Shown: one piece after another, positions 1,019 to 34,422 of the stretch | Numbering within the stretch: the stretch's first letter is position 1 | Layout of the letters: each line of letters starts with the position of its first letter | Source: a virus | Virus record (IMG/VR): IMGVR_UViG_3300005511_000019 | Location: 1 to 43,674 of that record | Reading direction: 5' to 3' (one strand) | Length of the DNA: 43,674 nucleotides | Made by a program: the position numbers and the translations under genes | The notes under the pieces: generated by a model | Database searches by the model: none | Told to the model about the DNA's origin: nothing | Seen by the model: only the letters and a program-made list of their open reading frames with translations

Positions 1019-2608
1019 CTAAGTTGAATTTAACCGAACGCGAACGCGGTCAGTGATCCGATCCTGCGTGATCCCTCGCTCGCGAAGCGTCTCGTATTGC
1101 ACGAGATCGTAGGTATTTTCGGCCAATATGGCGTGAATGAAGACGGTATGCGCCTCCTGGCCGGGCCGAGCGAGACGGCGGTTGAATTGATCCCACAACT
1201 CCAGTGACCACGTCAGGCCATACCAAGCTTGGATGTGACCGCCGAACTGGAGGTTGAGCCCGTGACCGATCGAAGCGGGATGGGCGACGCCATGTCGGAT
1301 GCGCCCAGCGTTCCAGTTTTTGACGAAATCAGGGTCGTTCTTGAAGAATACCGCCTTCGGGAAGCGCTTCATGATGCGCTCCAGATCGAACTGAAAGCTG
1401 TATGCGGTCAACACGGACTGGCCCGCAGCTTCCTCAACGATATTTTCGAGGGCTTTCAGCTTAAAGTCGTGGATCGCGATCGTTTCGCGAGGCGCGTCAG
1501 GATCATCAGGGTCTTGGCGATAGAGCCCGCCGTTCGCAAATTGCAGCAGCTTGTTGATTAAGACGCCGCGTGACAGGGCTTCAACGTCATATTGCTCGGC
1601 GATCATCGTGCGCTCAAAGGCGCGATATTGCTTCATCAGCTCTGACGGCAGGCGGACCTTGATCGGATTGAAGTGCCTCGGCGGCAGATCGATGTAATCC
1701 TGCGCGCGCAGACCGATCATCACATCTTTCATGCGGCCCATGATCTCGGCTTCCGCATGAGCTTTCGGCTTGATTTCGTAGCTGTATTTGTCCTCGTCGA
1801 ACCATCGCTGCTTGAAGGCAGTCTTGTTCTCGCCGAGCCGGCGCCCGCCGTCCAGAATGAAGGCTTGGCCGCCGAGGTCAATCAGGCCGTTGGGTGATGG
1901 TGTGCCAGACAGTTCCACCACGCGCTGAATGCGCGGCCGAGCCTGAGCAAGCACGCCGAACTCAGTCAGACGCGGCTTCTTTTTCTTCGTGCCCTTGGTG
2001 CGCCGCGTGAAGCCCTTGAGGCGACTGGACTCGTCATAGACCAGGATCGTCCAGCGCCAGCCGATCGCGCCGCCGATCTTCTTCCAGAGCCATTGCAAAT
2101 TCTCGCGATTGATGATGGTCAGATCGGCGTCGACCTTAAGCGCAGAAGATCGCTCAGCCTCGTCGCCGCAGACCACCGTGAAGGTGAGATCCTGCAAGTG
2201 TTCCCAGGCGCCGACTTCATCCGGCCAGGTGTTCTTCGCGACTTCGAGTGGCGCGACGATAAGGCAGCGGTGCCGACGATCGGCGCGGAGCAGCCGTCGA
2301 ACGCCCGTCAACGTGGCGCCGGTCTTGCCAAGGCTCATCTCAGCCGCGCCGAGCAGCGCGTCCATCTCCACGATCTTGTCAGCGAGATAGCGTTGATAGG
2401 AGCGTAGCGCCGATTCCGGCCGCAACCCCTTTTGCTCGACGAGCGCTTCCCGCTCGGCCCCTGTGTCGATCTCGAAGCCAAGCTGTTCGAGCAGAGAGAG
2501 GAATGGGGAGCCTGAGATCGGCTCGAACGGTGCCGGCGCATCGATCGCTAATCCGGCGTCTGCCAACAAGCTCAGATAAGGGGAGCGCTCAATCGTCGAA
2601 GAGAGCAC
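1019..2608 (-). CDS. SNF2/DEAD-like phage helicase
   Basis: ATP-dependent DNA helicase or translocase of 529 residues. The Walker A variant AAEMSLGKT lies near residues 88-96, and the Walker B/DEAD equivalent YDESSRLK near 191-198, the DESS form often seen in phage SNF2 helicases. LSGTPSPNG and a C-terminal RecA-like half with QFNRRLARPGQ (motif VI) follow. The GTG start overlaps the end of the VRR-NUC gene by 20 bases, a pairing common in phage replication modules. The N-terminus carries two copies of SP[YF]LSLL (residues 9-15 and 34-40) before the helicase core; their role is unknown. Its function in replication restart or recombination is inferred from context. Confidence 0.88.
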   Translation of the reverse strand: MLSSTIERSPYLSLLADAGLAIDAPAPFEPISGSPFLSLLEQLGFEIDTGAEREALVEQKGLRPESALRSYQRYLADKIVEMDALLGAAEMSLGKTGATLTGVRRLLRADRRHRCLIVAPLEVAKNTWPDEVGAWEHLQDLTFTVVCGDEAERSSALKVDADLTIINRENLQWLWKKIGGAIGWRWTILVYDESSRLKGFTRRTKGTKKKKPRLTEFGVLAQARPRIQRVVELSGTPSPNGLIDLGGQAFILDGGRRLGENKTAFKQRWFDEDKYSYEIKPKAHAEAEIMGRMKDVMIGLRAQDYIDLPPRHFNPIKVRLPSELMKQYRAFERTMIAEQYDVEALSRGVLINKLLQFANGGLYRQDPDDPDAPRETIAIHDFKLKALENIVEEAAGQSVLTAYSFQFDLERIMKRFPKAVFFKNDPDFVKNWNAGRIRHGVAHPASIGHGLNLQFGGHIQAWYGLTWSLELWDQFNRRLARPGQEAHTVFIHAILAENTYDLVQYETLRERGITQDRITDRVRVRLNST

Positions 2609-2858
2609 AGCCGGCCTCGTAGTTGTCGATCACATGCACTTCCATGCCGGCGCCGCGCAGCTCGCGGATGCGACGCCACTGCTGCTCGTCGGGCTCCTTC
2701 CCCTTGTCCTTGAACTCGATGATCTTCACGCGCCCATTGCGGAAGCACCAGGAGTCGGGACAGCCGCGGCGGCCGAGGAATGTCACTCGGCGCACTAGCC
2801 AGCCGCGGCGGCGCGCATATTCGGTTACAGGGTTCTGGACGGCGGCGATCTCAGCCAT
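2589..2858 (-). CDS. VRR-NUC domain nuclease
   Basis: Small nuclease of 89 residues in the PD-(D/E)XK superfamily. The catalytic signature is GCPDSW followed by KIIEFK about 13 residues later, then a conserved Q (DEQQ). Single-domain VRR-NUC proteins of this size are common in phages beside SNF2 helicases and may act as structure-specific nucleases. It lies six bases after the cytosine methyltransferase stop and overlaps the helicase start, so the three are probably cotranscribed. Confidence 0.88.
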   Translation of the reverse strand: MAEIAAVQNPVTEYARRRGWLVRRVTFLGRRGCPDSWCFRNGRVKIIEFKDKGKEPDEQQWRRIRELRGAGMEVHVIDNYEAGCALFDD

Positions 2859-2864
2859 GCGCCG

Positions 2865-4037
2865 TCACCCGAGGAGTTCTGCGAACGGGGTCACGTCAGC
2901 AGCGACTGAATCAATCTGGCGTAGGGGCTGGAAACTTGCCGCCTCGGCTTCGAGGAACGCTTCGATGAAGACGCGCGTCGCTTCGGCATCGACTGCATTG
3001 CCATAACCGCGCAGACGTCCCACGCGGGCGGCAGCCCCATGAGCCAGCGGGAATGTGCCGGGTTCAACTGGCCGCCACTTTCCATCCCGGCAGAAAAGCC
3101 AGTCAACATCTCGCCAGAGGCCGTTAGTCGGGCCGGCCCATCTGCCCGCAAAGCCGCGTGATTGAGCGTGATGTTCGGCGTCGTGAATTCCCGGTCCGGA
3201 TGACGCAGCGCATCCGTCGTCGTCGTCGTGGGCCAGCCGGTTAAAGCGCCCATCGTCACCAAGTCCGAATTCGGCCGCCCATTGTCCCGTCGCGTGTCCG
3301 CTCCTCCCTGATCGTCTGCCTTCTTCGGCGATGGCCATCCTGCCAAGTTCGCCTGTCGAGGAAGTTGATCCAGCCGCTCCGATCCGTCCGATCTCGGTTT
3401 GATGTCCGCGCCCGAATCCTTCCAGTCCCTGGTGGTGGTGGTGACCCAACTCGTCAGCGCGACATCCGCCGAGAGGGCGCCATTCGCCTGATTTGGTCCA
3501 CCTTTCGAGCCATTCGTTGCCCGAGGCGTATTCCAGCTCTGTTGCGGCAAAGCGGAGGCGTTGGCGGATGTGCGGCGCGCCACTCCCCGCAGAGCAGGTA
3601 TCGAGAGCCCCTGCGGCGTAACGCGTTCCTTCCATGTCAGCTTGAACAAGGTCGAGCCAAGCAAGTCCGTCTTTACTCGCAACCTGCTCGCCAAAGACGA
3701 CTGAAGGGCGCTCGATCTCGATGAGATAGTGCCAGAATGGCCATAGGTGCCGCTCGTCATCAAACCCGCCGCCTTGGCCTGCCGAGGAGAAAGGTTGGCA
3801 CGGGCAGCTTCCGGTCCAGAGAGGGCGGTCGTCAGGCCAGCCAGCGAGGCGGGCAGCGTAGCTCCAAACACCGATGCCGGCGAAGAAATGGCATTGGGTG
3901 AAACCTCGGAGGTCAGAAGGTCGAACATCCAGAATGCTCCGTTCGTCGACAACGCCGGGCGCGATATGGCCTTCGGCTATAAGCTCGCGCAACCATGCGG
4001 CAGCGAACGGGTCGATCTCGTTGTACCAAGCGGTCAT
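2865..4037 (-). CDS. DNA cytosine-C5 methyltransferase
   Basis: Transfers a methyl group from S-adenosylmethionine to C5 of cytosine in DNA. Motif I FFAGIG is at about residues 51-56, motif IV PCQPFSSAG (catalytic Cys) at 79-87, the ENV equivalent as FGEQV at 115-119, motif VIII QRLRF at 159-163, and motif X RLRGYGNAV near the C-terminus. Length is 390 residues. The target-recognition region (about 180-300) is low in complexity, with HHHH and DDDD runs, because the same DNA also encodes a second long frame (2891-3928). The protein ends in FAELLG, a variant of the tail shared by other proteins here. It probably protects phage DNA from restriction. An operator-like palindrome lies at 4051-4065, just upstream of the start. 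Confidence 0.9.
   Translation of the reverse strand: MTAWYNEIDPFAAAWLRELIAEGHIAPGVVDERSILDVRPSDLRGFTQCHFFAGIGVWSYAARLAGWPDDRPLWTGSCPCQPFSSAGQGGGFDDERHLWPFWHYLIEIERPSVVFGEQVASKDGLAWLDLVQADMEGTRYAAGALDTCSAGSGAPHIRQRLRFAATELEYASGNEWLERWTKSGEWRPLGGCRADELGHHHHQGLEGFGRGHQTEIGRIGAAGSTSSTGELGRMAIAEEGRRSGRSGHATGQWAAEFGLGDDGRFNRLAHDDDDGCAASSGPGIHDAEHHAQSRGFAGRWAGPTNGLWRDVDWLFCRDGKWRPVEPGTFPLAHGAAARVGRLRGYGNAVDAEATRVFIEAFLEAEAASFQPLRQIDSVAADVTPFAELLG
2891..3928 (-). CDS. Overlapping-frame protein inside the methyltransferase gene
   Basis: A second open frame of 345 codons inside the cytosine methyltransferase gene on the same strand. The start at 3928 (MFDLLTSEVSPN) has GGAG eight bases upstream. The sequence is not random: it contains TLFKLTWKERVTP, three GW-[PV]-x-T/S-type segments, and GGQLNPAHSRWLMGLPP. 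From memory, strings like these recur in phage proteins annotated as hypothetical or methyltransferase-associated, which suggests real dual coding. No function can be assigned. The alternative is that codon bias in a GC-rich gene keeps the frame open by chance, but the recognisable strings argue against that. Confidence 0.5.
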   Translation of the reverse strand: MFDLLTSEVSPNAISSPASVFGATLPASLAGLTTALSGPEAARANLSPRQAKAAGLMTSGTYGHSGTISSRSSALQSSLASRLRVKTDLLGSTLFKLTWKERVTPQGLSIPALRGVARRTSANASALPQQSWNTPRATNGSKGGPNQANGALSADVALTSWVTTTTRDWKDSGADIKPRSDGSERLDQLPRQANLAGWPSPKKADDQGGADTRRDNGRPNSDLVTMGALTGWPTTTTTDALRHPDREFTTPNITLNHAALRADGPARLTASGEMLTGFSAGMESGGQLNPAHSRWLMGLPPAWDVCAVMAMQSMPKRRASSSKRSSKPRRQVSSPYARLIQSLLT

Positions 4038-4045
4038 ACGTCACT

Positions 4046-4786
4046 CTAAATCAACATAGAGTTGATTATCAACTCGAAAGGAGACACCCGGAGTATTTTC
4101 ATTTCCCACCGTTTTGCTTCCCGCCAATCGTTAGCGTTTCGCCCTTGTTTGCGCGCAGCAAATGACCAAGCCATTGAGTCGGCCGTCCATAAAAGATTTC
4201 GAACAATATCTGACGCCAGCGCGGTCGTTTTCAGACCGAAGCCATGTAAGAGTAGATCAGGCCGGGCAGTCTTAATCGCGGTGAGCACCTCTTCGATCGC
4301 CGATGGATCGCCATTCCGTTTACAGACACTTCCGACACCGACCCAAGCGCCATGAGCCAGCCGATCACCGTACATTTCGATATGGCGCACGTAGTCAACA
4401 GGCGAATACCCTTGCAGAACTGGCATGATGTACACGCCACCAGTGTCGCAAGTGATTAAAGCGTCGTAACGCTCGATTGTCAGGCGCTGATGCTCCTCAA
4501 TCGTCTTGCCTGTGAGCGCCAGCATATGCGCCTCGCACATGTAGTCTTGTGCCACAGCGGCGAGTAAATTTCCATGAGTTGACCACCGCTTTATTTGGTC
4601 AGCATAGAATTCGACGCCTTCAGGATATCCGCCATGTGTCAAGATAGTCGTAAACGCACCGCTATCCATTATCCACGATTTTGCTGCAATTGGCTTTATG
4701 CGCTTCCGAATGCGATTTACTGAAATGAAGGCGTGATTGAAATGCGCCGCATCAGACGGCTGATGTAACCCGACAAAAAACCTCAC
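4046..4786 (-). CDS. dpdA: DpdA-like DNA guanine transglycosylase
   Basis: Related to tRNA-guanine transglycosylase. DpdA proteins swap guanine in DNA for a 7-deazaguanine base such as preQ0, which blocks many restriction enzymes. Family features seen: N-terminal RFFVGLHQPSDA, then MDSGAF (equivalent of the TGT DSGGF active-site loop), AVAQDYMCE, VGVGSVCKRNG, LHGFGLK, and ADSMAWSFAARKQGR, whose Asp matches the TGT nucleophile position. Length is 246 residues. The frame is open to 4822, but the GTG at 4786 fits the family N-terminus and overlaps the upstream stop as GTGA. No QueC, QueD, QueE or FolE gene is visible here, so the precursor would come from the host or from genes outside the window. 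Confidence 0.82.
   Translation of the reverse strand: MRFFVGLHQPSDAAHFNHAFISVNRIRKRIKPIAAKSWIMDSGAFTTILTHGGYPEGVEFYADQIKRWSTHGNLLAAVAQDYMCEAHMLALTGKTIEEHQRLTIERYDALITCDTGGVYIMPVLQGYSPVDYVRHIEMYGDRLAHGAWVGVGSVCKRNGDPSAIEEVLTAIKTARPDLLLHGFGLKTTALASDIVRNLLWTADSMAWSFAARKQGRNANDWREAKRWEMKILRVSPFELIINSMLI
4051..4065. promoter_or_regulatory. Operator-like palindrome 3
   Basis: TCAACATAGAGTTGA. It overlaps the last codons of the dpdA-like gene and lies 14 bases upstream of the methyltransferase ATG. Confidence 0.65.
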
Positions 4787-4881
4787 TTTTTGACTCTGCC
4801 CAGCAGCCAATGCGCTCCCCACGCGATATACGTGACGGCCACGATGGAGGGTAGAATGAGACCTAGCGGATCGTCGAACAT
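4783..4881 (-). CDS. Tiny membrane protein upstream of dpdA
   Basis: Thirty-two residues starting MFDDPLGLILPSIV and ending LLGRVKK. One hydrophobic segment (about residues 6-28) with positive residues after it predicts a single membrane span. The stop TGA overlaps the GTG start of the dpdA-like gene (GTGA), so the two are translationally coupled. The start lies 13 bases downstream of the palindrome at 4895-4909. There is no clear Shine-Dalgarno. Function unknown. Confidence 0.55.
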   Translation of the reverse strand: MFDDPLGLILPSIVAVTYIAWGAHWLLGRVKK

Positions 4882-4917: not shown

Positions 4918-6990
4918 TTATGAAAGACTGCCAATAATCCGCTTCCCGACAAAGACGTCTTCGAGGAGTTGCTGATAGGCTGACGGCGCGGTAGCTGGCA
5001 CCTCGTATCCAACCGCTCTGAGGATGTCGTAGGCCTCGGCGATGTAGCGCGCATAATCGAGATCGGTTGGCATCTCGTCGGGCAAGGTCATCGCCGGCTT
5101 ACACCCATCTGTCTTCGAGACCTTGGGGCGATTGCCGGTCTTCGGATGCCCCTTGACCTTGATGATCGGATCGCCGTCCGTCGACCAGTAGTAGCGCACC
5201 ACCTTGCCGAGATAGTGATCCCGCCAGGTGCCGCCTCCCGTGGCCTTCACGACGGTCACGAAGCCCCTGATGTCGGTGTTGCCGCGGATCGTCTCCTCGA
5301 TAGGCGTACCGTCCTTGAGGAAGGCTAGGACCGCATCACCGCAAATCGTCATCTGCGGGTTCTTCTTCATCTGCTCGCGGCCGGGATCATAGTCCGGCGA
5401 CTCGGGATGCCAGTGATTGGCGATGGCCCCCTTCCGCTTCGCCTTCCCGTTCGCCTTGATCGCGAAGTAGGTGTTGACGTCGCGGTTGTAGATCGAGCGG
5501 TACTCGGCGAATTCCAGCTCGAAACCGGTCTTCTGCTCCCACCAGTCGGTGATCTCCTTGAGCTTGCCACCGAGGAGGCGATCCTTGTCAGGCCCTTCCT
5601 TACCGATACCCTCGAACATCGAGCGCGGGCAGCGGAACACCACGCCATCGGTGTTGCCCGAAACGACGGAGATGCTGGCTGCCTCGGCCCGCTCGATCAG
5701 CATCAGCAAGGAGAGCTGTCCGGTGAGGGTGACGGCGATCATCAGGTGCGGAGCGTAAAGCACGCTGTAGATGCTGCCGAGCTTCCCGTAGGCGCCATTG
5801 AGCGCGATCTTGCCACCTTTGTCGCGTGCGAGCGCCTGGCGCTTCTCAGCTTCGAGCGCAGCAATGCGATCCTGTGCGGCGACGAGGGCTGCGGGATCGA
5901 GAGCACGCAGCGGCGCGAGCTGGTCGTTGATCAGCTTGGCCTGATGCTTGGCCTTGACGCGATCGTCGATGAGGCTGCCGTAGACAGGCAGGAACGATGG
6001 CCCGAGCGATTTCGGATAGAGCCCCAGCTTCATGATGATGCGCGGGTATTGGCTGGCCACGTCAGCGTCGACCAGGACATAGTCGTCATCGGAGTGGACG
6101 GCGCGACAGCTCTCGGTCGAATGCAGGCCGCCGATTCCCATTCGATAGGTCGACGATCCGATCGTGATGTTGAAGTCGTCGAATGCCTTCGGAAATTCGA
6201 CCTTGCCGTTGCGATCAATATGCAGATCGGTCTTACGGATCGTGTCGACGATCTCCCGCATTTGTGGGCTCTGAAATTCGAAGAACTCGGGCACCTGGTA
6301 GCGGAAGCTCGTGCCACCGATGTTCCTGGGCCTTTCGGCGCGCTGCTTGGTGATCGTCTCGACGCGCTTCTTGATAATGGCTTCACCCATCTGCGCATCG
6401 GATTTCGAGCGGAAATCCATGCCGTACTGCCGACCGAGCGCTTCACGAAGCTCCAGCGGCTCGGCGAGAGCGTTGAACAGGTTCTCGGTCGCGTCGAGAT
6501 CGCTCGTCAGGCAATAATCGGCGACGATGTCCATCTGCTCGGGCGACAGGATGGTCGCCTCGTCATACGGCAGATCCTGCAAGCGCTTCCCGTGCAGCCG
6601 ACCATTGAGCGTCTTGAGGCCGTCCTTCACCGCGGGATTGGGCTCGAACAGATCGATGTGGTTGAGCTTCGGAATCTTGATGTCGAGCGCTTCTTCGACT
6701 TCCCACCACCGGAGCCCGCCCTTGATGATCCGATCGCTCGCGATCTTGAGGTCGTCATTGCTGGCACCGCTCAAGGCCAGGAATATCATCGGCACGTCGT
6801 ATGGCAGGCTGTTGAAGCCGATCGAGAGGTTGTTCTTCATGATCTGCCGGATGCGACCGCGGTCGAAACCACCCGTAAGATCAGTTCGCTTGCTGAATTC
6901 AAAGCCAACGCGACGCCCGTCTTCGAGACGCTTGATGCCGATGTAGAAGAAATTGCGATAGCATTCGACGTCGACAAAGAGCGTCGCCAT
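4918..6990 (-). CDS. Family B DNA polymerase
   Basis: Replicative DNA polymerase of 690 residues with a 3'-5' exonuclease domain. The exonuclease has DVECYRN at about residues 7-13, FNSLPYD near 59-65 and DYCLTSDLDAT near 158-168. Polymerase motif A is DADVASQYPRII (about 308-319), motif B KIALNGAYGKLGS (about 394-406) and motif C SGNTDGVVF (about 445-453), where the usual DTDS is NTDG as in several phage PolB proteins. The ATG at 6990 has AGGAGG four bases before it; the longer frame to 7086 lacks such a site and would run over a palindrome. It is clustered with SSB-like and nuclease genes. Confidence 0.88.
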   Translation of the reverse strand: MATLFVDVECYRNFFYIGIKRLEDGRRVGFEFSKRTDLTGGFDRGRIRQIMKNNLSIGFNSLPYDVPMIFLALSGASNDDLKIASDRIIKGGLRWWEVEEALDIKIPKLNHIDLFEPNPAVKDGLKTLNGRLHGKRLQDLPYDEATILSPEQMDIVADYCLTSDLDATENLFNALAEPLELREALGRQYGMDFRSKSDAQMGEAIIKKRVETITKQRAERPRNIGGTSFRYQVPEFFEFQSPQMREIVDTIRKTDLHIDRNGKVEFPKAFDDFNITIGSSTYRMGIGGLHSTESCRAVHSDDDYVLVDADVASQYPRIIMKLGLYPKSLGPSFLPVYGSLIDDRVKAKHQAKLINDQLAPLRALDPAALVAAQDRIAALEAEKRQALARDKGGKIALNGAYGKLGSIYSVLYAPHLMIAVTLTGQLSLLMLIERAEAASISVVSGNTDGVVFRCPRSMFEGIGKEGPDKDRLLGGKLKEITDWWEQKTGFELEFAEYRSIYNRDVNTYFAIKANGKAKRKGAIANHWHPESPDYDPGREQMKKNPQMTICGDAVLAFLKDGTPIEETIRGNTDIRGFVTVVKATGGGTWRDHYLGKVVRYYWSTDGDPIIKVKGHPKTGNRPKVSKTDGCKPAMTLPDEMPTDLDYARYIAEAYDILRAVGYEVPATAPSAYQQLLEDVFVGKRIIGSLS

Positions 6991-7057
6991 AAGGCCTCCT
7001 CGGCGAAATCCAGGTTCGCCCATGTGGAAAGCCGTCGCCACGGAAGCGACGGAACAA

Positions 7058-7072
7058 GCAACATTATGTTGA
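7058..7072. promoter_or_regulatory. Operator-like palindrome 5
   Basis: GCAACATTATGTTGA, between the SSB-like gene and the DNA polymerase gene, 68 bases upstream of the polymerase ATG on the minus strand. Confidence 0.65.
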
Positions 7073-7122
7073 ATATCCCGACGCACTTATGGCGTCGGGA
7101 TACTGGCGTCAGGGATCAGCGA

Positions 7123-7857
7123 TCAGATGCCGAGACCGTCGTCATCATCGTCCTTCTTGGACGATCCGCCGCCGACATCGAGATCATCGTCGTCGAGGCC
7201 ATCGCCTTCCTCGTCCTCGAACTCGTCATCGACATTGGTGCGGGCGCCGCCACCGAACGCCTCGCCGTCCTTGGCGAACTGGACGGCCTCGATCGAGCAG
7301 TTGATGCGCTTGCCGTACTCCTCGTCGTCCTGCGCCCAAAAGCGCACCTTGGCGTTGACGTAGCAGCCGGAATACGGGGCGTCGCGCTCACCCTCCTCGA
7401 CGTCGGGGAAGCGCATGGCGCCATCCGACTGCCTGACCTTGCGGGGGCCGATGATGCGGAACGGGCGCTTCGGGCGCTGCGACTCCTCCCCATCCTTCGG
7501 CCCATAGCTCGTGCGGCTGGCCGAGACGTAGTAGCGCCCGGCATAACCGGCCCATTCCTCCTCGTCGCCGTCGCGCATCGCCAGCTTCTCACCCTTGATC
7601 TTGGGCGGGTCGGTCGGCCACTGAGCATCGCGCGCCTCGACCATTTTGGCCTTGATCGCCTTCTCCATAGCCTTGCCTTCAGCACTGTCCTTGTCGGGCA
7701 GCAGAAGGTTGATGCTGTTGCGGAAGGGGATCTTACCAGCGTGCTTTCCCTTCTTCCTGCGGTCGCCGGCCTCGGCGACAAAGAGGGTGTCGGCAAAAGA
7801 CAGCCGAACCGCCTTGAGCATGATGATTCCGATTTCGTCCTTTTTGGCCTCAGCCAT
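7123..7857 (-). CDS. DUF2815 ssDNA-binding protein
   Basis: Probable single-stranded DNA-binding protein of the DUF2815 (T7 gp2.5-like) type, 244 residues. Family features are LKAVRLSFADTLF near the start, a central YYVSASRTSYGP segment, and GCYVNAKVRFWAQ before the tail. The C-terminal 40 residues are very acidic and end DDDDDGLGI, like the protein-docking tails of other SSBs. The ATG at 7857 has GGAG nine bases upstream. It lies between the DUF2800 nuclease and the polymerase, the usual order for this phage module. Confidence 0.85.
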   Translation of the reverse strand: MAEAKKDEIGIIMLKAVRLSFADTLFVAEAGDRRKKGKHAGKIPFRNSINLLLPDKDSAEGKAMEKAIKAKMVEARDAQWPTDPPKIKGEKLAMRDGDEEEWAGYAGRYYVSASRTSYGPKDGEESQRPKRPFRIIGPRKVRQSDGAMRFPDVEEGERDAPYSGCYVNAKVRFWAQDDEEYGKRINCSIEAVQFAKDGEAFGGGARTNVDDEFEDEEGDGLDDDDLDVGGGSSKKDDDDDGLGI

Positions 7858-9432: not shown

Positions 9433-9951
9433 TCAGACGCCGAGACCGTCGTCGTCATCCTCGCCACCCTCGTCGATCGACGAGACCGGATCGGCGGCGA
9501 GACGGCCGATGCCATGGCCCTTGTCGGCCTTCTTGGCGGTCTCGTGCAGCCACTTGTGCAGGATGCCGATCTTCTCGGCATCGTTCTCGATCTCGGGCAG
9601 CTTGCCGATCTTGAGCTTGTCGTTCTTGAACACCTTCGCGAGGGCGTCCTTGCGGGCCGTCACCTCGGGATGGACGCCGTCAGGGTTCTCCTTGTCGGAC
9701 TCCTTGGCGAACTCGCCGAGCCAGGCCGTCAGGTCCTTCTTGAGCGTGTCGAAGCTCGGGCCGGAAGCCGCGCCGGCATCGTTGTCCTTCGGTTTGCGCG
9801 TGCGGGTCGTCTTGGGATCATCCTTGCCGGCGTCGCCGTCGTTCGATGCAGCGGCCTTGCCGGCGCCGGCCTTGGCGAGCACCTGCTTCAGCAGATCATT
9901 GTGTTCCGCCAGCAGTTCGTTGTTGCGGGTCAAAAGGTCTTCGAGGGCCAT
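9433..9951 (-). CDS. Acidic-tailed accessory protein of the replication module
   Basis: 172 residues, no recognised domain. An N-terminal amphipathic helix (LLTRNNELLAEHNDLLKQVL, about residues 6-25) looks like a short coiled coil. A charged low-complexity linker and a central helical domain with LTAWLGEFAKE follow. The end, EDDDDGLGV, nearly duplicates the SSB-like protein's tail, DDDDDGLGI. It is the first gene of the minus-strand operon, read from a promoter at 10036-10008. A role in replication, perhaps competing for the same partner as the SSB tail, is inference. Confidence 0.7.
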   Translation of the reverse strand: MALEDLLTRNNELLAEHNDLLKQVLAKAGAGKAAASNDGDAGKDDPKTTRTRKPKDNDAGAASGPSFDTLKKDLTAWLGEFAKESDKENPDGVHPEVTARKDALAKVFKNDKLKIGKLPEIENDAEKIGILHKWLHETAKKADKGHGIGRLAADPVSSIDEGGEDDDDGLGV

Positions 9952-10473: not shown

Positions 10474-12951
10474 ATGCTCGACACTGTAAGACACCTGGTT
10501 GACGCCGGGTTCGCTATTCATCGTCTCCATCCCAAGTCCAAGCGTCCCATCGGCGACGATTGGAGCACGAAGCCTTTTCTGTCGTTCGACCAGCTCAAGC
10601 GCATCTATCGTGATGGCGAGAACCTGGGCGTTCGGCTCGGCCAATGGTCGAAGGTTGGCGGCGGCTTTCTGCATGCGCTCGATCTCGACATTCGCGATCG
10701 GAAGCTGGCCGGCGAAGCGCGCGCGAAGCTCGGCGAACTATTTCCCGGCTGGAAAGAGATGCCAACTGTCGCCTCGGGCTCGGGTGGCGAAAGCCGGCAC
10801 ATCTATTTCCTGAGCGACAAGCACTTCCCCTCGACCAAGCTCGCGCACAGCGCTGAGAAGATCGAAGGACCGGACGGCACGAAGCATTGGGCCTGGGAGA
10901 TCGAGCTGTTCGGCACGGGCAAGCAAGTCGCTCTGCCGCCCTCTATCCATCCTGACACTGGCCGCCCTTATATCTGGACCAAACGCTTCGATTTCAGCGC
11001 TCTCGAACTCGGAATCGGCCCCTTTGTGCCGGCCGAGACGATTGAGGAACTGATTGGAGCCGACGACGAAGACGCGCTCGATCCTGAAAAGCAACAACCG
11101 CTCGGGCTCTCCGTAGATGAGATCCGCGAACTGCTCGACGAAATCCCGAACGACGATCTGGACTATGACGAGTGGTTGAACGTCATGGCCTCGGTGCAGC
11201 ACGAGGCCTTCGGTCGCGAGGAGGAAGAGCGGAAAGCGATCTTCGAGGTCTTCCGCGCCTGGTCTGCGCGCTCGAAGAAGCATGACGATCGCACCTGCCG
11301 CTACAAGTTCTTCTCCTTCAAGAACAAGGAGAGCCGACGCCATCGCACGATGCGGTCGATCCAGGCGGAAGTGCGCGAGCTACGGCTTGAAGCTGAATTC
11401 GACAATCTGGAAGACGAGTTCGACGATCTCGGCGACATGCCGGATATCGGCGAGGAGGATGAGCCCGAAGGCGACAACTCCATCATCGACGATCTGCTGG
11501 GCTTATCGGCTGCGCCTCGCAAGGAGGTCACGAAACGCCAGCAGAAACTGAACAAGGCCGACGTCGAACAGAAGCTAGGGTTCGTCCCGCCCAAAGTCGC
11601 GCGCATCAACAAGAAACACGCCGTCGCCTTCATCAACGGCAAGACGGTGATAGTCACCGAGAACAAGGACGGCTCGGTCAGCTATGGTACGGTCGGCGAT
11701 CTCCACAACTTCTACGAGAACGATCGCGTCGCGACGGAAAAGGCCACTGAGCCCCTGACGAAGGCGTGGCTACGGCACAAAGCCCGGCGCGAATACCCGA
11801 ACGGCGTCGTGTTCGCGCCGGGCGAGGATGTCGAGGGGGCCTATAACCACTGGCGCGGCTTCGCCGTCGAGCCGAGCAAGCGCGGCTCCTGCAAGCTGAT
11901 CCTCAAGCACATCAGAGCGATCATCTGCCGCGGCGACGAGACGGCCAACACCTATTTCGTCGGCTGGCTCGCTCACATGATCCAGAAGCCGTGGGAAAAG
12001 CCGGGCGTTGCCGTGGTGCTGCGTGGCGAGAAGGGCACCGGCAAGGACACGATCGGCGACTATGTCGGCGGCCTGTTTCCGCACCATCACGTCAAGATCG
12101 CCAATCAGGAGCATATGGTCGGCCGCTTCAACGCGCACCAGGAAAAGTGTCTGATGCTCCATGTCGAGGAAGGGTTTTGGGCCGGCAATAAACAGGCCGA
12201 AGGCATGCTGAAGCACCTCATCACCTCGGAGAAGGTGCTGATCGAGCCGAAGGGTCTGAACGGCTTCCACGTCAAGAGCGTCCTGCGGCTGTTCATGTCG
12301 TCGAACGAAAAATGGGTGGTGCCGGCCTCCGAAGATGAGCGCCGGTATTTTGTCCTCGACGTTGATCCGCGCTTCAGCCGCAAGCGCAGCGACGACGAGA
12401 CGCGCGACGCCTATTTCGACGCGATCCGCCAGGAGATGTTGAACGGCGGCCGGGAAGCGCTCTTGCACTATCTGCAGAACTACGACCTGTCGGATTTCAA
12501 TGTCCGCGCTGTGCCGAATACGGCTGCCCTGGCCGATCAGAAGCTCCAGGGTCTACGCAATATCGAGCGTTGGTGGCATGGCCAGTTGCAGAGCGGCGAG
12601 CCCGACTTCCCGTGCTTCCACGAGGAGCGCGCTGGCGACTGGCCGCGCGAGACCATCAGCGCCGATCGGCGCGAGTTCCGCGACGCCTATAGCCGCTGGA
12701 TGCGCTCGCGCCGCTATGATGGTGAGGAGCTGCGCGACGTCGATATCGGCAAGCATCTGCGGGCAATGTGTCCCGAGGTCCGCGAGACGCGGCCGAACAG
12801 CGGCGGTGGCGGCGCGCGCCCGCGCACCTATCAGTTCCCGATGCTGGAAACGTGCCGCCGAGCGTTCGAAGTGTGGATCGGTTCTGAGTTGGAATGGCCG
12901 GACGATCTGCCCGATCCACCGTCCGACGAGTACGATGATCTGCTTCATTAA
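10474..12951 (+). CDS. Primase-polymerase/helicase fusion
   Basis: Bifunctional replication protein of 825 residues. The N-terminal 200 residues look like a bifunctional prim-pol domain: HALDLDIRD (about 68-76) holds the metal-binding Asp pair, with SGGESRHIYF and GTGKQVALPPSIH following. A PriCT-2-like segment (YDEWLNVMASVQHEAFG) follows. The C-terminal half is a DUF5906/SF3-like helicase with Walker A GEKGTGKDT (about 518-526), Walker B-like CLMLHVEEGFW and the sensor-like LFMSSNEKWVVPA. A linker at about 337-343 reads IIDDLLG and the last residues are YDDLLH, both resembling the shared DLLG tail. It starts 44 bases after the HTH gene. Confidence 0.88.
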   Translation: MLDTVRHLVDAGFAIHRLHPKSKRPIGDDWSTKPFLSFDQLKRIYRDGENLGVRLGQWSKVGGGFLHALDLDIRDRKLAGEARAKLGELFPGWKEMPTVASGSGGESRHIYFLSDKHFPSTKLAHSAEKIEGPDGTKHWAWEIELFGTGKQVALPPSIHPDTGRPYIWTKRFDFSALELGIGPFVPAETIEELIGADDEDALDPEKQQPLGLSVDEIRELLDEIPNDDLDYDEWLNVMASVQHEAFGREEEERKAIFEVFRAWSARSKKHDDRTCRYKFFSFKNKESRRHRTMRSIQAEVRELRLEAEFDNLEDEFDDLGDMPDIGEEDEPEGDNSIIDDLLGLSAAPRKEVTKRQQKLNKADVEQKLGFVPPKVARINKKHAVAFINGKTVIVTENKDGSVSYGTVGDLHNFYENDRVATEKATEPLTKAWLRHKARREYPNGVVFAPGEDVEGAYNHWRGFAVEPSKRGSCKLILKHIRAIICRGDETANTYFVGWLAHMIQKPWEKPGVAVVLRGEKGTGKDTIGDYVGGLFPHHHVKIANQEHMVGRFNAHQEKCLMLHVEEGFWAGNKQAEGMLKHLITSEKVLIEPKGLNGFHVKSVLRLFMSSNEKWVVPASEDERRYFVLDVDPRFSRKRSDDETRDAYFDAIRQEMLNGGREALLHYLQNYDLSDFNVRAVPNTAALADQKLQGLRNIERWWHGQLQSGEPDFPCFHEERAGDWPRETISADRREFRDAYSRWMRSRRYDGEELRDVDIGKHLRAMCPEVRETRPNSGGGGARPRTYQFPMLETCRRAFEVWIGSELEWPDDLPDPPSDEYDDLLH

Positions 12952-15659: not shown

Positions 15660-15974
15660 TCAGCCGAGCAGATCTTCGTAAATGGCGACGATCGGTGGCT
15701 TGGGCCGGTACTCCCAATGCCGGCACCCTTTGGCATCGACAATGCGAGAGCCGCTTTTCTCCCATCCGAGCTTCTTGGTGAGGATGAACGCGATCCGCTG
15801 AGCTTCCGCAGTTTGCAGATCACGCGGGTTTCGCTTGAGCCCTTTTCCCCATAACTGGACCATCGTGATCGACGACTGCCGCGCCAACCATTTGCGGATC
15901 GTCCGCATCTCCTGAATGAACAGGCGGTCCTCTCGGAATTTCCTCACGCTCGCCTCCCGCGATTTCCCAGCCAT
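15660..15974 (-). CDS. Unknown protein with DLLG tail
   Basis: 104 residues, basic, starting MAGKSREASVRKFREDR and ending AIYEDLLG, the tail shared with other proteins here. The middle has TAEAQRIAFILTKKLGWEKS and CRHWEYRP. No family recognised. An alternative ATG lies six bases upstream; the palindrome at 15995-16009 sits just upstream. The gene is transcribed toward the terminator at 15626, alone on this strand. Confidence 0.6.
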   Translation of the reverse strand: MAGKSREASVRKFREDRLFIQEMRTIRKWLARQSSITMVQLWGKGLKRNPRDLQTAEAQRIAFILTKKLGWEKSGSRIVDAKGCRHWEYRPKPPIVAIYEDLLG

Positions 15975-17379: not shown

Positions 17380-17652
17380 ATGGAACATGCAAACGCCACC
17401 CTGCCGCACACACGGCTAGAGGCGCGCTCGCAAGGCAGTCGCCTTTATTGGGGCCTGCAGTGTGAGGCGCATCCCGGCTCGCCACGCTATACGGCCAACG
17501 CCCGATGTGTGGCCTGCGCCAAGCTCGATCGGCAGGCGAGGGGTAAGGCTAATCCTGCCTATGATGCGGCGCGCAAGCGCTTGGCCAGGGCACGCCTTGC
17601 GGCTGAACGAGCTGCAACCGTCGCCCCGCAGTTCGCCGATTTGTTGGGCTGA
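17380..17652 (+). CDS. Small Cys-rich protein with DLLG tail
   Basis: 90 residues. The segment RLYWGLQCEAHPGSPRYTAN then CVAC aligns with the N-terminal Cys-rich region of the neighbouring HNH protein, so it looks like that zinc-binding domain on its own. It ends APQFADLLG, the shared tail. No nuclease residues are present. Possible roles are a regulator of, or competitor for, the HNH protein's DNA site; this is inference. Confidence 0.65.
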   Translation: MEHANATLPHTRLEARSQGSRLYWGLQCEAHPGSPRYTANARCVACAKLDRQARGKANPAYDAARKRLARARLAAERAATVAPQFADLLG

Positions 17653-31823: not shown

Positions 31824-32162
31824 ATGGCCGATGAAGACGACGCGTTGGGGCTCGATGAGGAGTCCGAGGTGCCTGCCTCCGACCGGAAGGTGAAGAGGCA
31901 GGACAACAAGACGATCGATCCCGACAGCCTCAATGGTGACAATCAGCTCAAGAGCATTGTTGAGCGGATCGAACGGCTTGAGGAAGAGAAGAAGACCGTC
32001 GCCGACGACATCAAGGAAGTCTATGCCGAGGCCAAGGGCAACGGTTACGACACCAAGATCTTGCGCAAGGTCATCGCCCTTCGTAAGCGTGACCTCGACG
32101 AGCGCAAAGAAGAGGAATCCATCCTCGAATTATACTTGGACGCGGTCGGACATACTGCCTGA
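31824..32162 (+). CDS. GapR-like nucleoid protein (DUF2312)
   Basis: 112 residues. The segment [20 protein letters not shown] then [20 protein letters not shown] is the hallmark of DUF2312/GapR, a Caulobacter-type protein that binds overtwisted DNA ahead of moving polymerases. Host forms are about 90 residues; this one has a charged 30-residue N-terminal extension. A phage GapR could support its own replication or compete with the host one. It supports an alphaproteobacterial host. Confidence 0.9.
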
Positions 32163-32395
32163 TGACTGATTTCGAGCGCTTCTTCGAGACTGAATTTCCC
32201 GAGCGACTGCGTTCGGTCGGGGATGAGGTCGGGGCGCTGTCGAACGGTCTCCCGCTGAGGGATGCGAGTTGGGATCGCAAGGCAGCTTTCCTCCTTTGGG
32301 AAGCGCTCGGTAAGCCCGCCCCCGTCGTTCACGCGCCGGCCAAGATTGCTCTCAACCAATTGGCTGAGCGCATTTTCGAGGATCTGCTCGGATGA
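32162..32395 (+). CDS. Small protein 1 of the DLLG series
   Basis: 77 residues, starting at the last base of the GapR stop. The body is helical (DFERFFETEFPERLR to AFLLWEALGK) and the end is IFEDLLG. GAGG inside the tail codons lies 10 bases before the next ATG. Function unknown. Confidence 0.65.
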   Translation: MTDFERFFETEFPERLRSVGDEVGALSNGLPLRDASWDRKAAFLLWEALGKPAPVVHAPAKIALNQLAERIFEDLLG

Positions 32396-32628
32396 CGTCG
32401 CTCGATACCCTGTTCGATCGAGCACGCCACGAGAAGCTGCGCATCGGCATTTTGGCGCAGGGCACGCACGGCGGCTGGCATTGCTATGCCTATCGAAAGA
32501 CCAAGCTTCACGGCGTCGGCTTCGGCGCCACGCCGGAAGCGGTGCTCGAACTGGCCATCAACGGTCACAGCTACATCGAGAAGCCGCCTGAGCCGGTGGC
32601 CTCGCAATTTGCGGATTTGCTCGGATGA
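32392..32628 (+). CDS. Small protein 2 of the DLLG series
   Basis: 78 residues. The middle, GTHGGWHCYAYRKTKLHGVG then GATPEAVLELAI, looks like a small alpha/beta unit with an aromatic core. It ends SQFADLLG. The start overlaps the previous stop (ATGA) and its own stop overlaps the next start. Confidence 0.65.
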   Translation: MTSLDTLFDRARHEKLRIGILAQGTHGGWHCYAYRKTKLHGVGFGATPEAVLELAINGHSYIEKPPEPVASQFADLLG

Positions 32629-32855
32629 AAGCCTTGGAAATCGGAGTCTACCAGCGCGTCAGCGGCGAAGGACCGGAGTTCCTGTCGCGACCACTCGTCA
32701 ACGAGAAGGAGCGCCTGATCTTCACTGGCGCTACGGCGGCTGAAGCCGAGGAACGGGCTCGCGCCTGGTATCAGAAGAACTTCGAGCCGCAGCGTGGCGC
32801 ACCCGTTCGCGCCAAGGTGAAGGCCGCCGACGAGTTCGAGGATCTGCTTGGATGA
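32625..32855 (+). CDS. Small protein 3 of the DLLG series
   Basis: 76 residues. The body has FLSRPLVNEKERLIFTGATA and AAEAEERARAWYQKNFEPQ, a helical segment that resembles phage DUF proteins ending RAxxWYxxN. It ends DEFEDLLG. Coupled to both neighbours by four-base overlaps. Confidence 0.65.
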   Translation: MKALEIGVYQRVSGEGPEFLSRPLVNEKERLIFTGATAAEAEERARAWYQKNFEPQRGAPVRAKVKAADEFEDLLG

Positions 32856-33130
32856 AGACGCTCGACGAATTGCTGCGCGAGACCGCGGCCAAGGGCGAGC
32901 TGAACTATCTCTCGATCGCCTGCACTGAAAAGGGATTCGAGGTCGCCTACCGGGGAGTCAAACGCTCTGACGGCTCGATACGCGCTCACCGCGACCCCGT
33001 CTGCGCCGTCATGCTGGCTCTGACCGGCAAGCCCGGTGAAGAGCCAGCGCCGCGTGCGCGCAAACAGCGAGCCCGGCAAGCTGAACCGGCCGCCGCCCCG
33101 CGTGATGCATTCGACGACCTGTTGGGATGA
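32852..33130 (+). CDS. Small protein 4 of the DLLG series
   Basis: 92 residues. KTLDELLRETAAKGELNYLS and GFEVAYRGVKRSDG, then a basic linker (RARKQRARQAEP), ending RDAFDDLLG. Its stop overlaps the methyltransferase start. Function unknown; the linker-plus-tail layout fits a flexible docking peptide. Confidence 0.65.
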   Translation: MKTLDELLRETAAKGELNYLSIACTEKGFEVAYRGVKRSDGSIRAHRDPVCAVMLALTGKPGEEPAPRARKQRARQAEPAAAPRDAFDDLLG

Positions 33131-34422
33131 CCATGTCCGTCAAACTCTACGAAGGCGATAATCGAGTTGTGCTGCGCGAGATGGCCGAGCGCGGTGAGCT
33201 GGTGGATTCCGTCTTCACCGATCCACCTTATGGCCTCGTGAGCGTCACCAAGCGCTTCGGCAAGGATGGGTCGAAGGCAGCGAAGCATGGCCGTGACGGC
33301 GCCTTCGCACGCCAGTCGCGCGGCTTCATGGGCAAGCAATGGGACGGCACCGCCATCGAGCGTGATCCTGAGTTCTGGCAGCTCGTCTACAACGTGATGA
33401 AGCCCGGCGCCTATATCGTCGCGTTCTCGTCGAGCCGCACCTATCACCATATGGCGGTCGCGATCGAGGCCGCGGGCTTCGTCACCCATCCCATGATCGG
33501 ATGGGTGTTCGGCTCGGGTTTCCCGAAGGCACACAATGCCGCAATGGCGATCGACAAGCAGTTAGGTGCCAAGGGTGCAGTGAACGCCACTGGTGAGCCC
33601 GTCCGTCGCATTCGCCCCGGCGCTGACCAACACAAGGACGGCTCCTGGGAAAAGCTCGAAGATCGGGTCTACCAACCGGGCACGTATGAGCCGGCCACGC
33701 CCGAGGCTGCGCAGTGGCAGGGATGGGCGTATGGCGGTCAGGCCCGCAAGCCGGCGCTAGAACCTATCTACGTTGGCCAAAAGCCGTTCTCGGAACCCAA
33801 TGGCGCAGCCAACATCCTGAAGCATGGCGTCGGAGCAGTGAACATCGACGGATGTCGTGCCGGCGAGCGATATCCTGCCAATCTAATTCTGGACGGCTCT
33901 CCCGACGTTGAGGCCCTATTCCCTTACACCAAGAGCGGCAAGCCCGGCGTAATGCGCAAGGGTCAGAACGACGGCGCCTGTTACGGCGCCGAAAGTCGAG
34001 CCCCCGGCACGGCGATGACGGGCTTCGGCGATGAGGGATCGGCGGCGCGCTTCTTCGAGAGCTATCCGTTCGACGGTGAGCCCGTCTTCTACCGCGCAAA
34101 GGCCAACAAGCTGGACCGCGCCGGCTCACGCCATCCGACCGTGAAGCCGGTATCTCTCAACCAGGCGCTCATCCGCCACGTCACGCCACCAGGCGGCCTT
34201 GTGCTCGATCCCTTCGCCGGGAGTGGCACGACCGGAGCAGCGGCGCTCGCGGAAGGCATGCGGGCCGTCCTGATCGAGATGGAGGCCGAATATGCGGCCG
34301 ATATCAGGCGTAGGCTCAATCTGACGCATCCAGCGAGTACACTCTTCTCGGATCTGCTGGGTGAAGCTGCGCCTGATAATTCAACACAATGTCGAATTTC
34401 GTTCGAGGATCTGCTTGGATGA
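33127..34422 (+). CDS. Beta-class DNA methyltransferase (N4-cytosine or N6-adenine)
   Basis: 431 residues. Motif IV DPPYG at 32-36 precedes motif I DPFAGSGTTGAAAL at about 361-374, the beta-class order, with YDxxGxW-like features absent. GWVFGSGFPKAHN, ANILKHGVGAVNIDGCR, YPANLIL and HPTVKPVSLNQ are hallmarks of phage adenine or N4-cytosine enzymes. It would protect phage DNA or alter its regulation. The C-terminus has two tails: LFSDLLG at about 406-412, then EAAPDNSTQCRI and SFEDLLG at the end. The first looks like the original end, read through after loss of its stop codon. Confidence 0.88.
   Translation: MTMSVKLYEGDNRVVLREMAERGELVDSVFTDPPYGLVSVTKRFGKDGSKAAKHGRDGAFARQSRGFMGKQWDGTAIERDPEFWQLVYNVMKPGAYIVAFSSSRTYHHMAVAIEAAGFVTHPMIGWVFGSGFPKAHNAAMAIDKQLGAKGAVNATGEPVRRIRPGADQHKDGSWEKLEDRVYQPGTYEPATPEAAQWQGWAYGGQARKPALEPIYVGQKPFSEPNGAANILKHGVGAVNIDGCRAGERYPANLILDGSPDVEALFPYTKSGKPGVMRKGQNDGACYGAESRAPGTAMTGFGDEGSAARFFESYPFDGEPVFYRAKANKLDRAGSRHPTVKPVSLNQALIRHVTPPGGLVLDPFAGSGTTGAAALAEGMRAVLIEMEAEYAADIRRRLNLTHPASTLFSDLLGEAAPDNSTQCRISFEDLLG
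34381..34395. promoter_or_regulatory. Operator-like palindrome 23 inside the methyltransferase end
   Basis: TCAACACAATGTCGA, within the read-through extension of the methyltransferase, 24 bases before the ATG at 34419. It would have been intergenic before the stop was lost. Confidence 0.55.

What the first reader, a model, noticed from the sequence alone, without database searches (positions are those of the whole stretch)
32374..34422. A shared C-terminal peptide, [F/Y]-x-[D/E]-L-L-G, on at least eight unrelated phage proteins
The cytosine methyltransferase (FAELLG, stop at 2865), the 104-aa gene (YEDLLG, 15660), the 90-aa Cys-rich gene (FADLLG, 17652), four tiny genes (FEDLLG 32395, FADLLG 32628, FEDLLG 32855, FDDLLG 33130) and the beta-class methyltransferase (FEDLLG 34422, plus FSDLLG internally) all end this way. 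The primase has IIDDLLG in a linker and ends YDDLLH. Codons differ (ctgctc, ttgctc, ctgctt, ctgttg, ctcctc), so the conservation is at protein level. In the 32-34 kb cluster the tail DNA also carries the next gene's GAGG and overlapping ATGA, but the copies at 2865, 15660 and 17652 have no such neighbour start, so ribosome binding alone cannot explain it. It may be a docking tag, like the SSB tail or a clamp-binding peptide, that gathers DNA-acting proteins at one partner, or a degradation or packaging tag. I know of no description of this tail.
Basis: seen in the sequence. Interest (0 to 1): 0.85.

Follow-up and report, generated by a model that had tools for sequence, protein, structure and literature searches.

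The report
Phage-private shared protein docking tag
A group of bacterial viruses puts the same short peptide on many unrelated proteins that copy, modify, cut or package viral DNA, and each virus lineage has its own version of the peptide, which looks like a private docking code that gathers these proteins at one still unknown partner.

Summary
Eight window proteins end in [FY]x[DE]LLG (8 of 53 genes; about 0.004 expected). Relatives carry the same kind of tail in lineage-specific versions that hardly mix: FxDLLG (window, G003, two prophages), FxD[IV]LG (Rhizobium phages), LxDL[LF]/LL[VI] (Rhodobacter phages), xVF[DEG] (EBPR siphovirus 2). Two lysogen genomes have the FxDLLG form only near the prophage. 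The motif also sits in a primase linker (8 of 8 homologues) and near the N-termini of small terminase and portal. In relatives, the same C-terminal place of the methyltransferases carries textbook sliding-clamp motifs (QLSLF, QLDLF) or forms like the Q-less DLPLF that works in Caulobacter MutS; one methyltransferase family ends QLTLFG, DLPLFS or FEDLLG in three different phages. I conclude that it is a short linear docking motif that replaced a clamp-binding motif and gathers modification, replication and packaging proteins at one hub. The hub is not identified: more likely phage-encoded than host DnaN. Ribosome-binding, degron and free-C-terminus explanations are disfavoured or rejected. No listing or passage I saw describes it.

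The parts
2865..4037 (-). C5 cytosine methyltransferase (390 aa), tail FAELLG at 2868-2885
   Evidence: phrog_363 E 1.4e-73; PF00145; tail; tailed homologues in other dialects
15660..15974 (-). 104-aa protein of unknown function, tail YEDLLG at 15663-15680
   Evidence: homologue in G009 ends FEDVLGA
17380..17652 (+). 90-aa Cys-rich protein, tail FADLLG at 17632-17649
   Evidence: homologues in G003 (FADLLG), G008 (FGDILG), RHph 1246-1527 (FDDVLG); several other homologues have no tail
32162..32395 (+). 77-aa protein, tail FEDLLG at 32375-32392
   Evidence: homologue in G003 with FEDLLG
32392..32628 (+). 78-aa protein, tail FADLLG at 32608-32625
   Evidence: blastp link to a G003 protein with FADLLG, E 6e-6 but including the tail; a search with the body alone found no homologue at E 1e-3
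32625..32855 (+). 76-aa protein, tail FEDLLG at 32835-32852
   Evidence: homologue in EBPR siphovirus 2 ends AGNSVFD
32852..33130 (+). 92-aa protein, tail FDDLLG at 33110-33127; predicted alpha-beta-beta-beta-alpha domain (about 3-58) plus low-confidence, probably disordered extension that ends in the tail
   Evidence: homologues end FDDLLG, FEDLLG, RYDDIV
33127..34422 (+). beta-class N6/N4 DNA methyltransferase (431 aa) with tandem motifs FSDLLG (34345-34362) and FEDLLG (34402-34419)
   Evidence: PF01555 E 2.5e-25; tandem tail in relatives
10474..12951 (+). primase-polymerase (825 aa) with motif IDDLLG in an acidic linker (11485-11502) and C-terminal YDDLLH (12931-12948)
   Evidence: phrog_1156, PF09250, PF08707; linker motif in 8 of 8 homologues
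7123..7857 (-). gp2.5/Enc34-type ssDNA-binding protein with a second, acidic tail type (DDDDDGLGI)
   Evidence: PF10991 E 1.7e-25; tail
9433..9951 (-). 172-aa conserved protein with the same second tail type (EDDDDGLGV)
   Evidence: fold not determined
4918..7086 (-). family A DNA polymerase; no dialect motif in 8 of 8 homologues; a candidate (unproven) hub
   Evidence: phrog_1252 E 4.5e-186

Best explanation
The peptide is a short linear docking motif, phi-x-[DE]-[LIV]-[LF]-G or a lineage variant of it, carried on flexible ends and linkers of the phage's DNA-handling proteins. It occupies the place where relatives carry a sliding-clamp-binding motif, and it tethers DNA methyltransferases, primase, small terminase subunit, portal, in some phages integrase, resolvase or exonuclease, and several small proteins to one shared hub at the replicating phage DNA. 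Shown here: enrichment, lineage dialects, restriction of the FxDLLG form to the phage in two lysogens, presence in linker and N-terminal positions, and exchange with clamp motifs in the same protein family. Inferred: that it binds a protein, that all copies bind the same one, and that the effect is local recruitment, so that new phage DNA is modified, processed and packaged by the phage's own enzymes. The hub is inferred to be phage-encoded and to co-evolve with the tails. By elimination and by analogy with T7, where the acidic tails of gp2.5 and gp4 bind the family A polymerase (recalled), I would test the family A polymerase first, then the large terminase and SNF2 helicase, then host DnaN.
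For: Window 8 of 53 genes, nominal P 3.5e-24. Pattern F.[DE][LIMFV][LIMFV]G-stop in 14 records: 22 matches in 5 records against 1 for the reversed control. Dialects: RHph 6 of 95, RcCWillis 9 of 96, RcSalem 7 of 100, EBPR siphovirus 2 10 of 66; the LLG, L[LFI][VI] and VF[ADEGT] endings never occur in each other's sets. Same family, other dialect: G003 FSDLL, RcCWillis LDDLLI, RcSalem LDDLFV; w32852 family FDDLLG, FEDLLG, YDDIV. Only near the prophage in two lysogens. Primase linker 8 of 8; small terminase N-terminus 7 of 8 by pattern and RHph FDDIFG by eye; portal N-terminus 6 of 8 by pattern. No copy in large terminase (8 of 8), SNF2 helicase (8 of 8) or polymerase (8 of 8). Tandem tail shared by two methyltransferase families that blastp matches only in the tail. 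Clamp-motif place: 22 of 153 tails with Qxx[LM][FL] against 1.6 in shuffles; one methyltransferase family with QLTLFG, DLPLFS or FEDLLG. Low-confidence (disordered) tail extension predicted for one small protein.
Against: No interaction was or could be tested. The hub is unnamed, and 'phage-encoded' rests on the near-uniformity of each dialect within a genome, which is not perfect: G013 has FKEILG beside LLG endings, G008 has FDDIFGG, G009 mixes ILG and VLG, and the RcCWillis and RcSalem portals begin with LSDLLG. Dialect patterns other than the window's were written after looking at the tails, so their P values are nominal. Not every homologue has a tail: 21 of 31 C5 methyltransferase rows match none of the three motif classes (some of these carry another dialect, such as LDGLIV), the integrase has it in 3 of 8, several w17380 homologues lack it, and the window's Tgt-like protein ends without it. 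All polymerase homologues, KurtStettler's included, contain QL[STA]LL (11 of 11), which fits the clamp consensus but lies in a conserved helix-like stretch. Some remote links in the small-protein family are weak (E 0.0003-0.07).
Confidence: 0.57

Rival explanations
1. Same docking motif, but the hub is the host sliding clamp DnaN: the tails are divergent, glutamine-less clamp-binding motifs.
For: Relatives carry canonical clamp motifs at the same place. Passages of PMC8034640 report that Q-less DLPLF is needed for recruitment of Caulobacter MutS to the replisome, and passages of PMC13254535 say that Q is not absolutely required. A related polymerase (39% identical) in phage KurtStettler lies next to a gene annotated as polymerase beta subunit, with a weak PF02767 match below the curated cut-off. 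QL[STA]LL is present in 11 of 11 polymerase homologues.
Against: No Q at position 1 in the eight window tails or the ten EBPR siphovirus 2 tails; the wider bearer list was selected for F, Y or L there and says nothing. The dialect is nearly uniform within a genome and differs between phages, whereas known clamp clients of one host are mixed (recalled). Two lysogen genomes lack the FxDLLG form outside the prophage region. These phages have their own family A replisome.
Confidence: 0.28
2. Proteolysis tag (C-degron) read by ClpXP, Lon or a tail-specific protease.
For: Hydrophobic C-termini, strongest in the LLV dialect of the Rhodobacter phages.
Against: Copies in a linker of the primase and near N-termini of terminase and portal, tandem internal copies, a conserved acidic residue, one-residue extensions tolerated (FHDILGG, FHDILGA).
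Confidence: 0.04
3. Virion-loading tag: tagged proteins are taken into the capsid and injected with the DNA.
For: The portal and small terminase carry the motif.
Against: Portal and terminase carry the ligand form, not a receptor; primase and integrase are not known virion cargo (recalled). No experiment or virion data were available.
Confidence: 0.06
4. No protein function: a by-product of overlapping stop/start and ribosome binding sites, or of gene conversion between neighbouring genes.
For: Five of the eight copies end in ATGA that overlaps a listed or possible next start, and three of these contain GAGG; the copy at 2865 has a start 6 bases further on.
Against: Codons differ between copies, the copies at 15660 and 17652 lack such starts, relatives end in TAA or TAG, internal and N-terminal copies exist, dialects change together across unlinked genes.
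Confidence: 0.01

Closest known systems
Bacterial beta sliding clamp (DnaN) binding motif, Q-phi-x-[LM]-[FL]
   Same: Short, mostly terminal, two adjacent hydrophobic residues at positions 4-5, acidic residue often at 3, on DNA-metabolism proteins; found at the same C-terminal place in homologous methyltransferases
   Different: F, Y, L or I instead of Q at position 1, L as often as F at position 5, a conserved G after it in the LLG/ILG dialects; one nearly uniform dialect per phage; bearers include small terminase and portal
T7 gp2.5 and gp4 acidic C-terminal tails that bind the family A polymerase gp5 (recalled; related papers seen only as a search listing)
   Same: Several replication proteins of a phage with a family A polymerase share a terminal tail that binds one partner; these phages also have a family A polymerase and a gp2.5-like SSB
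   Different: T7 tails are strongly acidic and C-terminal (recalled); here the motif is hydrophobic-acidic, occurs in a linker and near N-termini, and is spread over modification and packaging proteins
SSB C-terminal tail (DDDIPF) interactome (recalled)
   Same: One terminal peptide, many DNA-repair partners
   Different: In the SSB case one protein has the tail and many proteins bind it; here many proteins have the tail
Clamp-binding transposases (passages of PMC5371812)
   Same: Mobile-element proteins that reach the replication fork by a clamp motif
   Different: Described for single transposition proteins with the canonical QxxL(x)F-type motif

Membership tests
DnaN-binding motif | Glutamine at position 1 | tested here: not met
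   0 of 8 window tails and 0 of 10 EBPR siphovirus 2 tails; the literature says Q enhances but is not strictly needed and DLPLF works in Caulobacter MutS
DnaN-binding motif | Hydrophobic pair at positions 4-5, [LM][FL] | tested here: met
   LL in 8 of 8 window tails; LL, LF, IL, VL or VF in other dialects
DnaN-binding motif | Same place in homologous proteins as a canonical motif | tested here: met
   Canonical Qxx[LM][FL] in 22 of 153 methyltransferase tails, 1.6 expected from shuffles; QLTLFG / DLPLFS / FEDLLG within one family of three members found
DnaN-binding motif | Direct binding to DnaN | not testable with these tools
   No complex prediction or binding assay available
SSB-type or T7-type acidic C-terminal tail | Free C-terminus and acidic run with terminal aromatic residue (recalled) | tested here: not met
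   Internal and N-terminal copies and extended ends exist
C-terminal degron | Read only at the free C-terminus | tested here: not met
   conserved copies in a linker and near N-termini; half-life itself was not testable
Phage family Casjensviridae | Shared replication and structural genes | tested here: inconclusive
   Polymerase 51-56% identical to phages RHph_X2_30 and RcCWillis, which their records place in Casjensviridae, many shared genes, but the window is a 43,674-base linear record, possibly a fragment, and no family-level analysis was run

The most novel reading that the evidence does not exclude
Each lineage of these phages runs a private address code: a phage-encoded hub with its own peptide pocket, evolved from or in place of the sliding clamp, and a matching short motif on many of the proteins that replicate, modify, recombine or package phage DNA. 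The code links replication, modification and packaging physically, could keep the phage's enzymes off host DNA, and newly acquired genes are re-addressed by exchanging a host-clamp motif for the private one.
Probability: 0.48. Interest if true: 0.9.

Novelty: new variant of a known kind. Interest (0 to 1): 0.82.

Why it matters
A phage-wide motif turns a list of unknown small proteins into a proposed interaction network. Any protein with the tail can be placed, as a hypothesis, at the DNA-processing centre, and the hub can be fished with one peptide. The dialects give a natural experiment in co-evolution of one receptor with many ligands. If the private-hub reading is right, it offers a way in which a phage could keep its modification and packaging machinery specific for its own DNA. 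The methyltransferase result on its own (clamp-type motifs at the C-terminus of a broad family of phage and bacterial DNA methyltransferases) makes replication-coupled methylation testable.

Tried and rejected
Ribosome-binding or overlap artefact: rejected. Host docking lexicon: not supported in two lysogens, where all matches to the FxDLLG-stop pattern lie in one stretch of one contig; this pattern tests only the F form with G at the end. Phage-encoded DnaN clamp: PF02768 found none in 10 of 10 records, and phmmer with the KurtStettler clamp found none at E 10 among the ORFs then held for the tail phages. Both tests would miss a strongly diverged clamp: the KurtStettler protein itself matched only PF02767, below the cut-off, and PF02768 rang in 11 of 14 control genomes. 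The 172-aa conserved protein as hub: model too poor to judge (mean pLDDT 57.5). Fold of the 92-aa protein: no PDB match with E <= 0.001 (best 0.1, a dsRNA-binding fold), and no PHROG match at E 0.01 for 9 of 9 members. A collection scan for F[ADEGV][DE]LLG-stop in one codon form gave 45 loci with one match each, among them a near-identical copy of the window's C5 methyltransferase (L056) and many short ORFs; I did not compute the chance expectation. A very loose pattern search was only noise. Strict clamp motifs are enriched near C-termini but hardly near N-termini in loci L093-L251 (52 against 3.9 and 11 against 6.0 expected). My own gene callers missed or mis-started genes, so the counts use a hand-curated window list and deposited annotation; of the Loktanella, AH2 and KurtStettler annotation I counted only part (48, 30 and 44 CDS). 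Literature: searches gave no listing that describes this tail (48 and 82 had no hits; of 49, 62 and 85 only 20 of 81, 15 of 26 and 6 of 23 papers were listed). I read passages of PMC13254535, PMC3716654, PMC8034640 and PMC5371812; all others were seen as listings with abstract starts.
Full report
1. THE OBSERVATION. On a hand-curated list of 53 window genes, 8 end in [FY].[DE]LLG; there is one internal copy of this form, so the expectation is 0.004. The window is a 43,674-base IMG/VR virus record classed as linear. Its family A DNA polymerase is closest, at 51-56% identity, to phages of Rhodobacter capsulatus and to Rhizobium phage RHph_X2_30, which their records place in Casjensviridae. One correction: the copy at 2865 is followed after 6 bases by the start of the gene 2589-2858(-).

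2. IT RECURS IN RELATIVES, IN DIALECTS. A DNA pattern for F.[DE][LIMFV][LIMFV]G-stop was run over 14 records: 22 matches in 5 of them (window 7, G003 5, G008 5, G009 2, RHph 3) against 1 for the reversed pattern. RHph ends proteins in FLDILG, FHDILGG, FDDILG, FADILG, FSDVLG; RcCWillis and RcSalem in LSDLFI, LDDLLI, LDDLFV and xLLV/LLI; EBPR siphovirus 2 in xVF[DEGAT]. Counted on annotated genes: RHph 6 of 95 for F.[DE][ILV]LG, RcCWillis 9 of 96 and RcSalem 7 of 100 for L[LFI][VI], EBPR siphovirus 2 10 of 66 for VF[ADEGT]. Window-type LLG, L[LFI][VI] and VF endings score 0 in each other's genomes; the RHph pattern includes L and so also takes 7 of the window's tails. Caulobacter phage DMCA (91 CDS), Loktanella phage (48 CDS counted), Burkholderia phage AH2 (30 counted) and KurtStettler (44 counted) score 0 for all five patterns. 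Patterns other than the window's were written after seeing the tails, so those P values are nominal. Mixing is rare but exists: G013 has one FKEILG among LLG endings, G009 has ILG and VLG, and the Rhodobacter portals begin with LSDLLG.

3. THE BEARERS ARE UNRELATED, BUT THE TAIL FOLLOWS THE GENOME. All-against-all comparison of 48 candidate bearers (a few are chance ORFs) gives at least fourteen families by my reading; some blastp links rest on the tail itself. The same family carries the dialect of the genome it sits in: G003 FSDLL, RcCWillis LDDLLI, RcSalem LDDLFV; the 92-aa family of window 32852, searched without the tail, has FDDLLG in the window and in Gemmobacter L094, FEDLLG twice in L093, RYDDIV in L009/L010, and at weaker significance PKSVFD in EBPR siphovirus 2 (E 0.0025) and EEDVFS in L272 (E 0.0003) (tail included). 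C5 methyltransferase homologues: FAELLG, FDDLLG, FEDLLG, FEDVLG, LDGLIV, GCDDII, RNVFD, but 21 of 31 rows match none of the three motif classes tested. The C-terminal tandem module (phi-x-D-phi-L-G, ST linker, phi-x-D-phi-L-G) is shared by the beta-class methyltransferases and by another methyltransferase family in RHph and G008 that blastp matches to them only in the tail, so the tail was kept while the enzyme changed, or moved between them.

4. IT IS PRIVATE TO THE PHAGE. Of five whole bacterial genomes searched, the two with a tail-type prophage have 7 and 4 matches, all with true stops and all inside one 31-kb and one 30-kb stretch of the contig that holds the prophage, and none in the rest of 6.9 and 4.7 Mb. 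The other three have 1, 0 and 3 matches, of which one reads a true stop; reversed-pattern controls total 4 over the five genomes. Only the F form with a final G was tested.

5. IT IS NOT ONLY C-TERMINAL. The primase has the motif in an acidic linker in 8 of 8 homologues, in the dialect of each genome: window IDDLLG, G003 FDDLLG, G012 FDDLLG, G008 FDDILG, G009 FDDVLG, RHph FDDILG, RcCWillis LDDLLD, RcSalem LDDLLD. The small terminase has it near the N-terminus in 7 of 8 homologues by pattern (for G003 the start was not determined), and in the eighth, RHph, as FDDIFG. The portal has it near the N-terminus in 6 of 8 by pattern and, by eye, as EILEMLG and ESLELLG in the other two; RHph, G008 and G009 have a second copy near the C-terminus. 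I found no homologue of these two genes in the window. Large terminase (8 of 8), SNF2 helicase (8 of 8) and family A polymerase (8 of 8) have no dialect motif; the window's polymerase has a loose match, LEDVF, near its end. This speaks strongly against degron and other explanations that need a free C-terminus.

6. THE CLAMP CONNECTION. In 165 distinct homologues of the window's beta-class methyltransferase (hits that did not reach query residue 375 were dropped; only identical ends were merged), 153 have a tail of 8 or more residues after the catalytic core. Canonical Qxx[LM][FL] occurs in 22 of 153 (mean 1.6, largest 7 in 1000 residue shuffles), [PSDGT][LM]F in 100 of 153 (mean 6.6, largest 14), PLF in 59 of 153 (mean 1.2, largest 6), and [FLY]x[DEN][LIV][LIF] in 16 of 153 (mean 3.5, largest 10). 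Examples are QLSLF, QLDLF, QLKLF, QMDMF and QLDLLG. Another methyltransferase-like family (NPPF motif, read by eye) ends QLTLFG in L120, DLPLFS in L181 and QFEDLLG in the tail prophage L093 (phmmer E 3e-112 and 6e-74; three distinct members found). In loci L093-L251 a strict clamp pattern has 52 matches near ORF C-termini against 3.9 expected from its internal rate, methyltransferases included and near-identical loci not merged, but only 11 against 6.0 near N-termini. Passages of PMC8034640 report that DLPLF, without Q, is needed for recruitment of Caulobacter MutS to the replisome; passages of PMC13254535 give the consensus Q-phi-x-[LM]-[FL] and say Q is not absolutely required.

7. MECHANISM. 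Shown: a motif under selection at protein level, near chain ends and in one linker, on replication, modification, packaging and small proteins, nearly uniform within and different between phage genomes, at the place of clamp motifs in relatives. For one small protein the prediction is a compact domain (about residues 3-58) with a low-confidence extension that carries the tail. Inferred: binding to one hub. I put the hub as phage-encoded because uniform dialects within a genome and change between genomes are what a co-evolving private receptor would give, whereas clamp clients of one host are mixed (recalled); because two host genomes lack the form; and because these phages bring their own family A polymerase, gp2.5-like SSB and primase. 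PF02768 found no DnaN in 10 of 10 records, but a diverged clamp could escape that search. Core proteins without the motif, and therefore possible hubs, are the polymerase, the large terminase and the SNF2 helicase. Host DnaN stays a serious rival, and the QL[STA]LL stretch found in 11 of 11 polymerase homologues would fit it if it were exposed.

8. KNOWN OR NEW. It works like a clamp-binding or T7-type replisome tail, but it lacks the glutamine of the clamp motif and does not need the free C-terminus of the acidic tails. The searches, all in one open-access library and some listed only in part, showed no description of a per-phage docking dialect spread over replication, modification and packaging proteins. 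I rate it a new variant of a known kind.

Noticed in passing
window 7123-7857(-) and 9433-9951(-): SSB and a 172-aa conserved protein share a second, acidic tail type (DDDDDGLGI, EDDDDGLGV); in RHph the homologues end DDDDI and DDEI. A second docking class may exist.
   Followed up: partly
L287 (Burkholderia phage AH2): ParB-like protein, SSB, small terminase, RusA and exonuclease end in PADDL, PADGL, PAEGL, DDDL, FDDL: possibly another dialect.
   Followed up: no
L009 / L010: A phage related by its methyltransferase seems to use a DDI[IV] dialect (GCDDII, VNDDII, RYDDIV); its methyltransferase has no clear tail.
   Followed up: partly
window 31824-32162(+): A GapR-like gene (PF10073, E 1.6e-33) lies directly upstream of the tailed small genes; its homologues in RcCWillis, RcSalem and EBPR siphovirus 2 carry the dialect tail, the window one does not.
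   Followed up: partly
window 4046-4810(-) and L003 6474-7163(-): Queuine tRNA-ribosyltransferase-like genes (phrog_1279 and phrog_887), possible 7-deazaguanine DNA modification; the RHph one ends FSDVLG, the window one does not.
   Followed up: no
L092 19594-22089(+): The C5 methyltransferase gene of EBPR siphovirus 2 contains intein and LAGLIDADG domain matches.
   Followed up: no
L002 1246-1527(+): An open frame in RHph without an annotated CDS of this end is a homologue of window 17380-17652 and ends FDDVLG.
   Followed up: no
L135, L140, L142, L110, just upstream of the methyltransferase: A small Cys-containing protein family ends in canonical clamp motifs QGDLF or QGSLF; no homology to the window's 92-aa protein was found.
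   Followed up: partly
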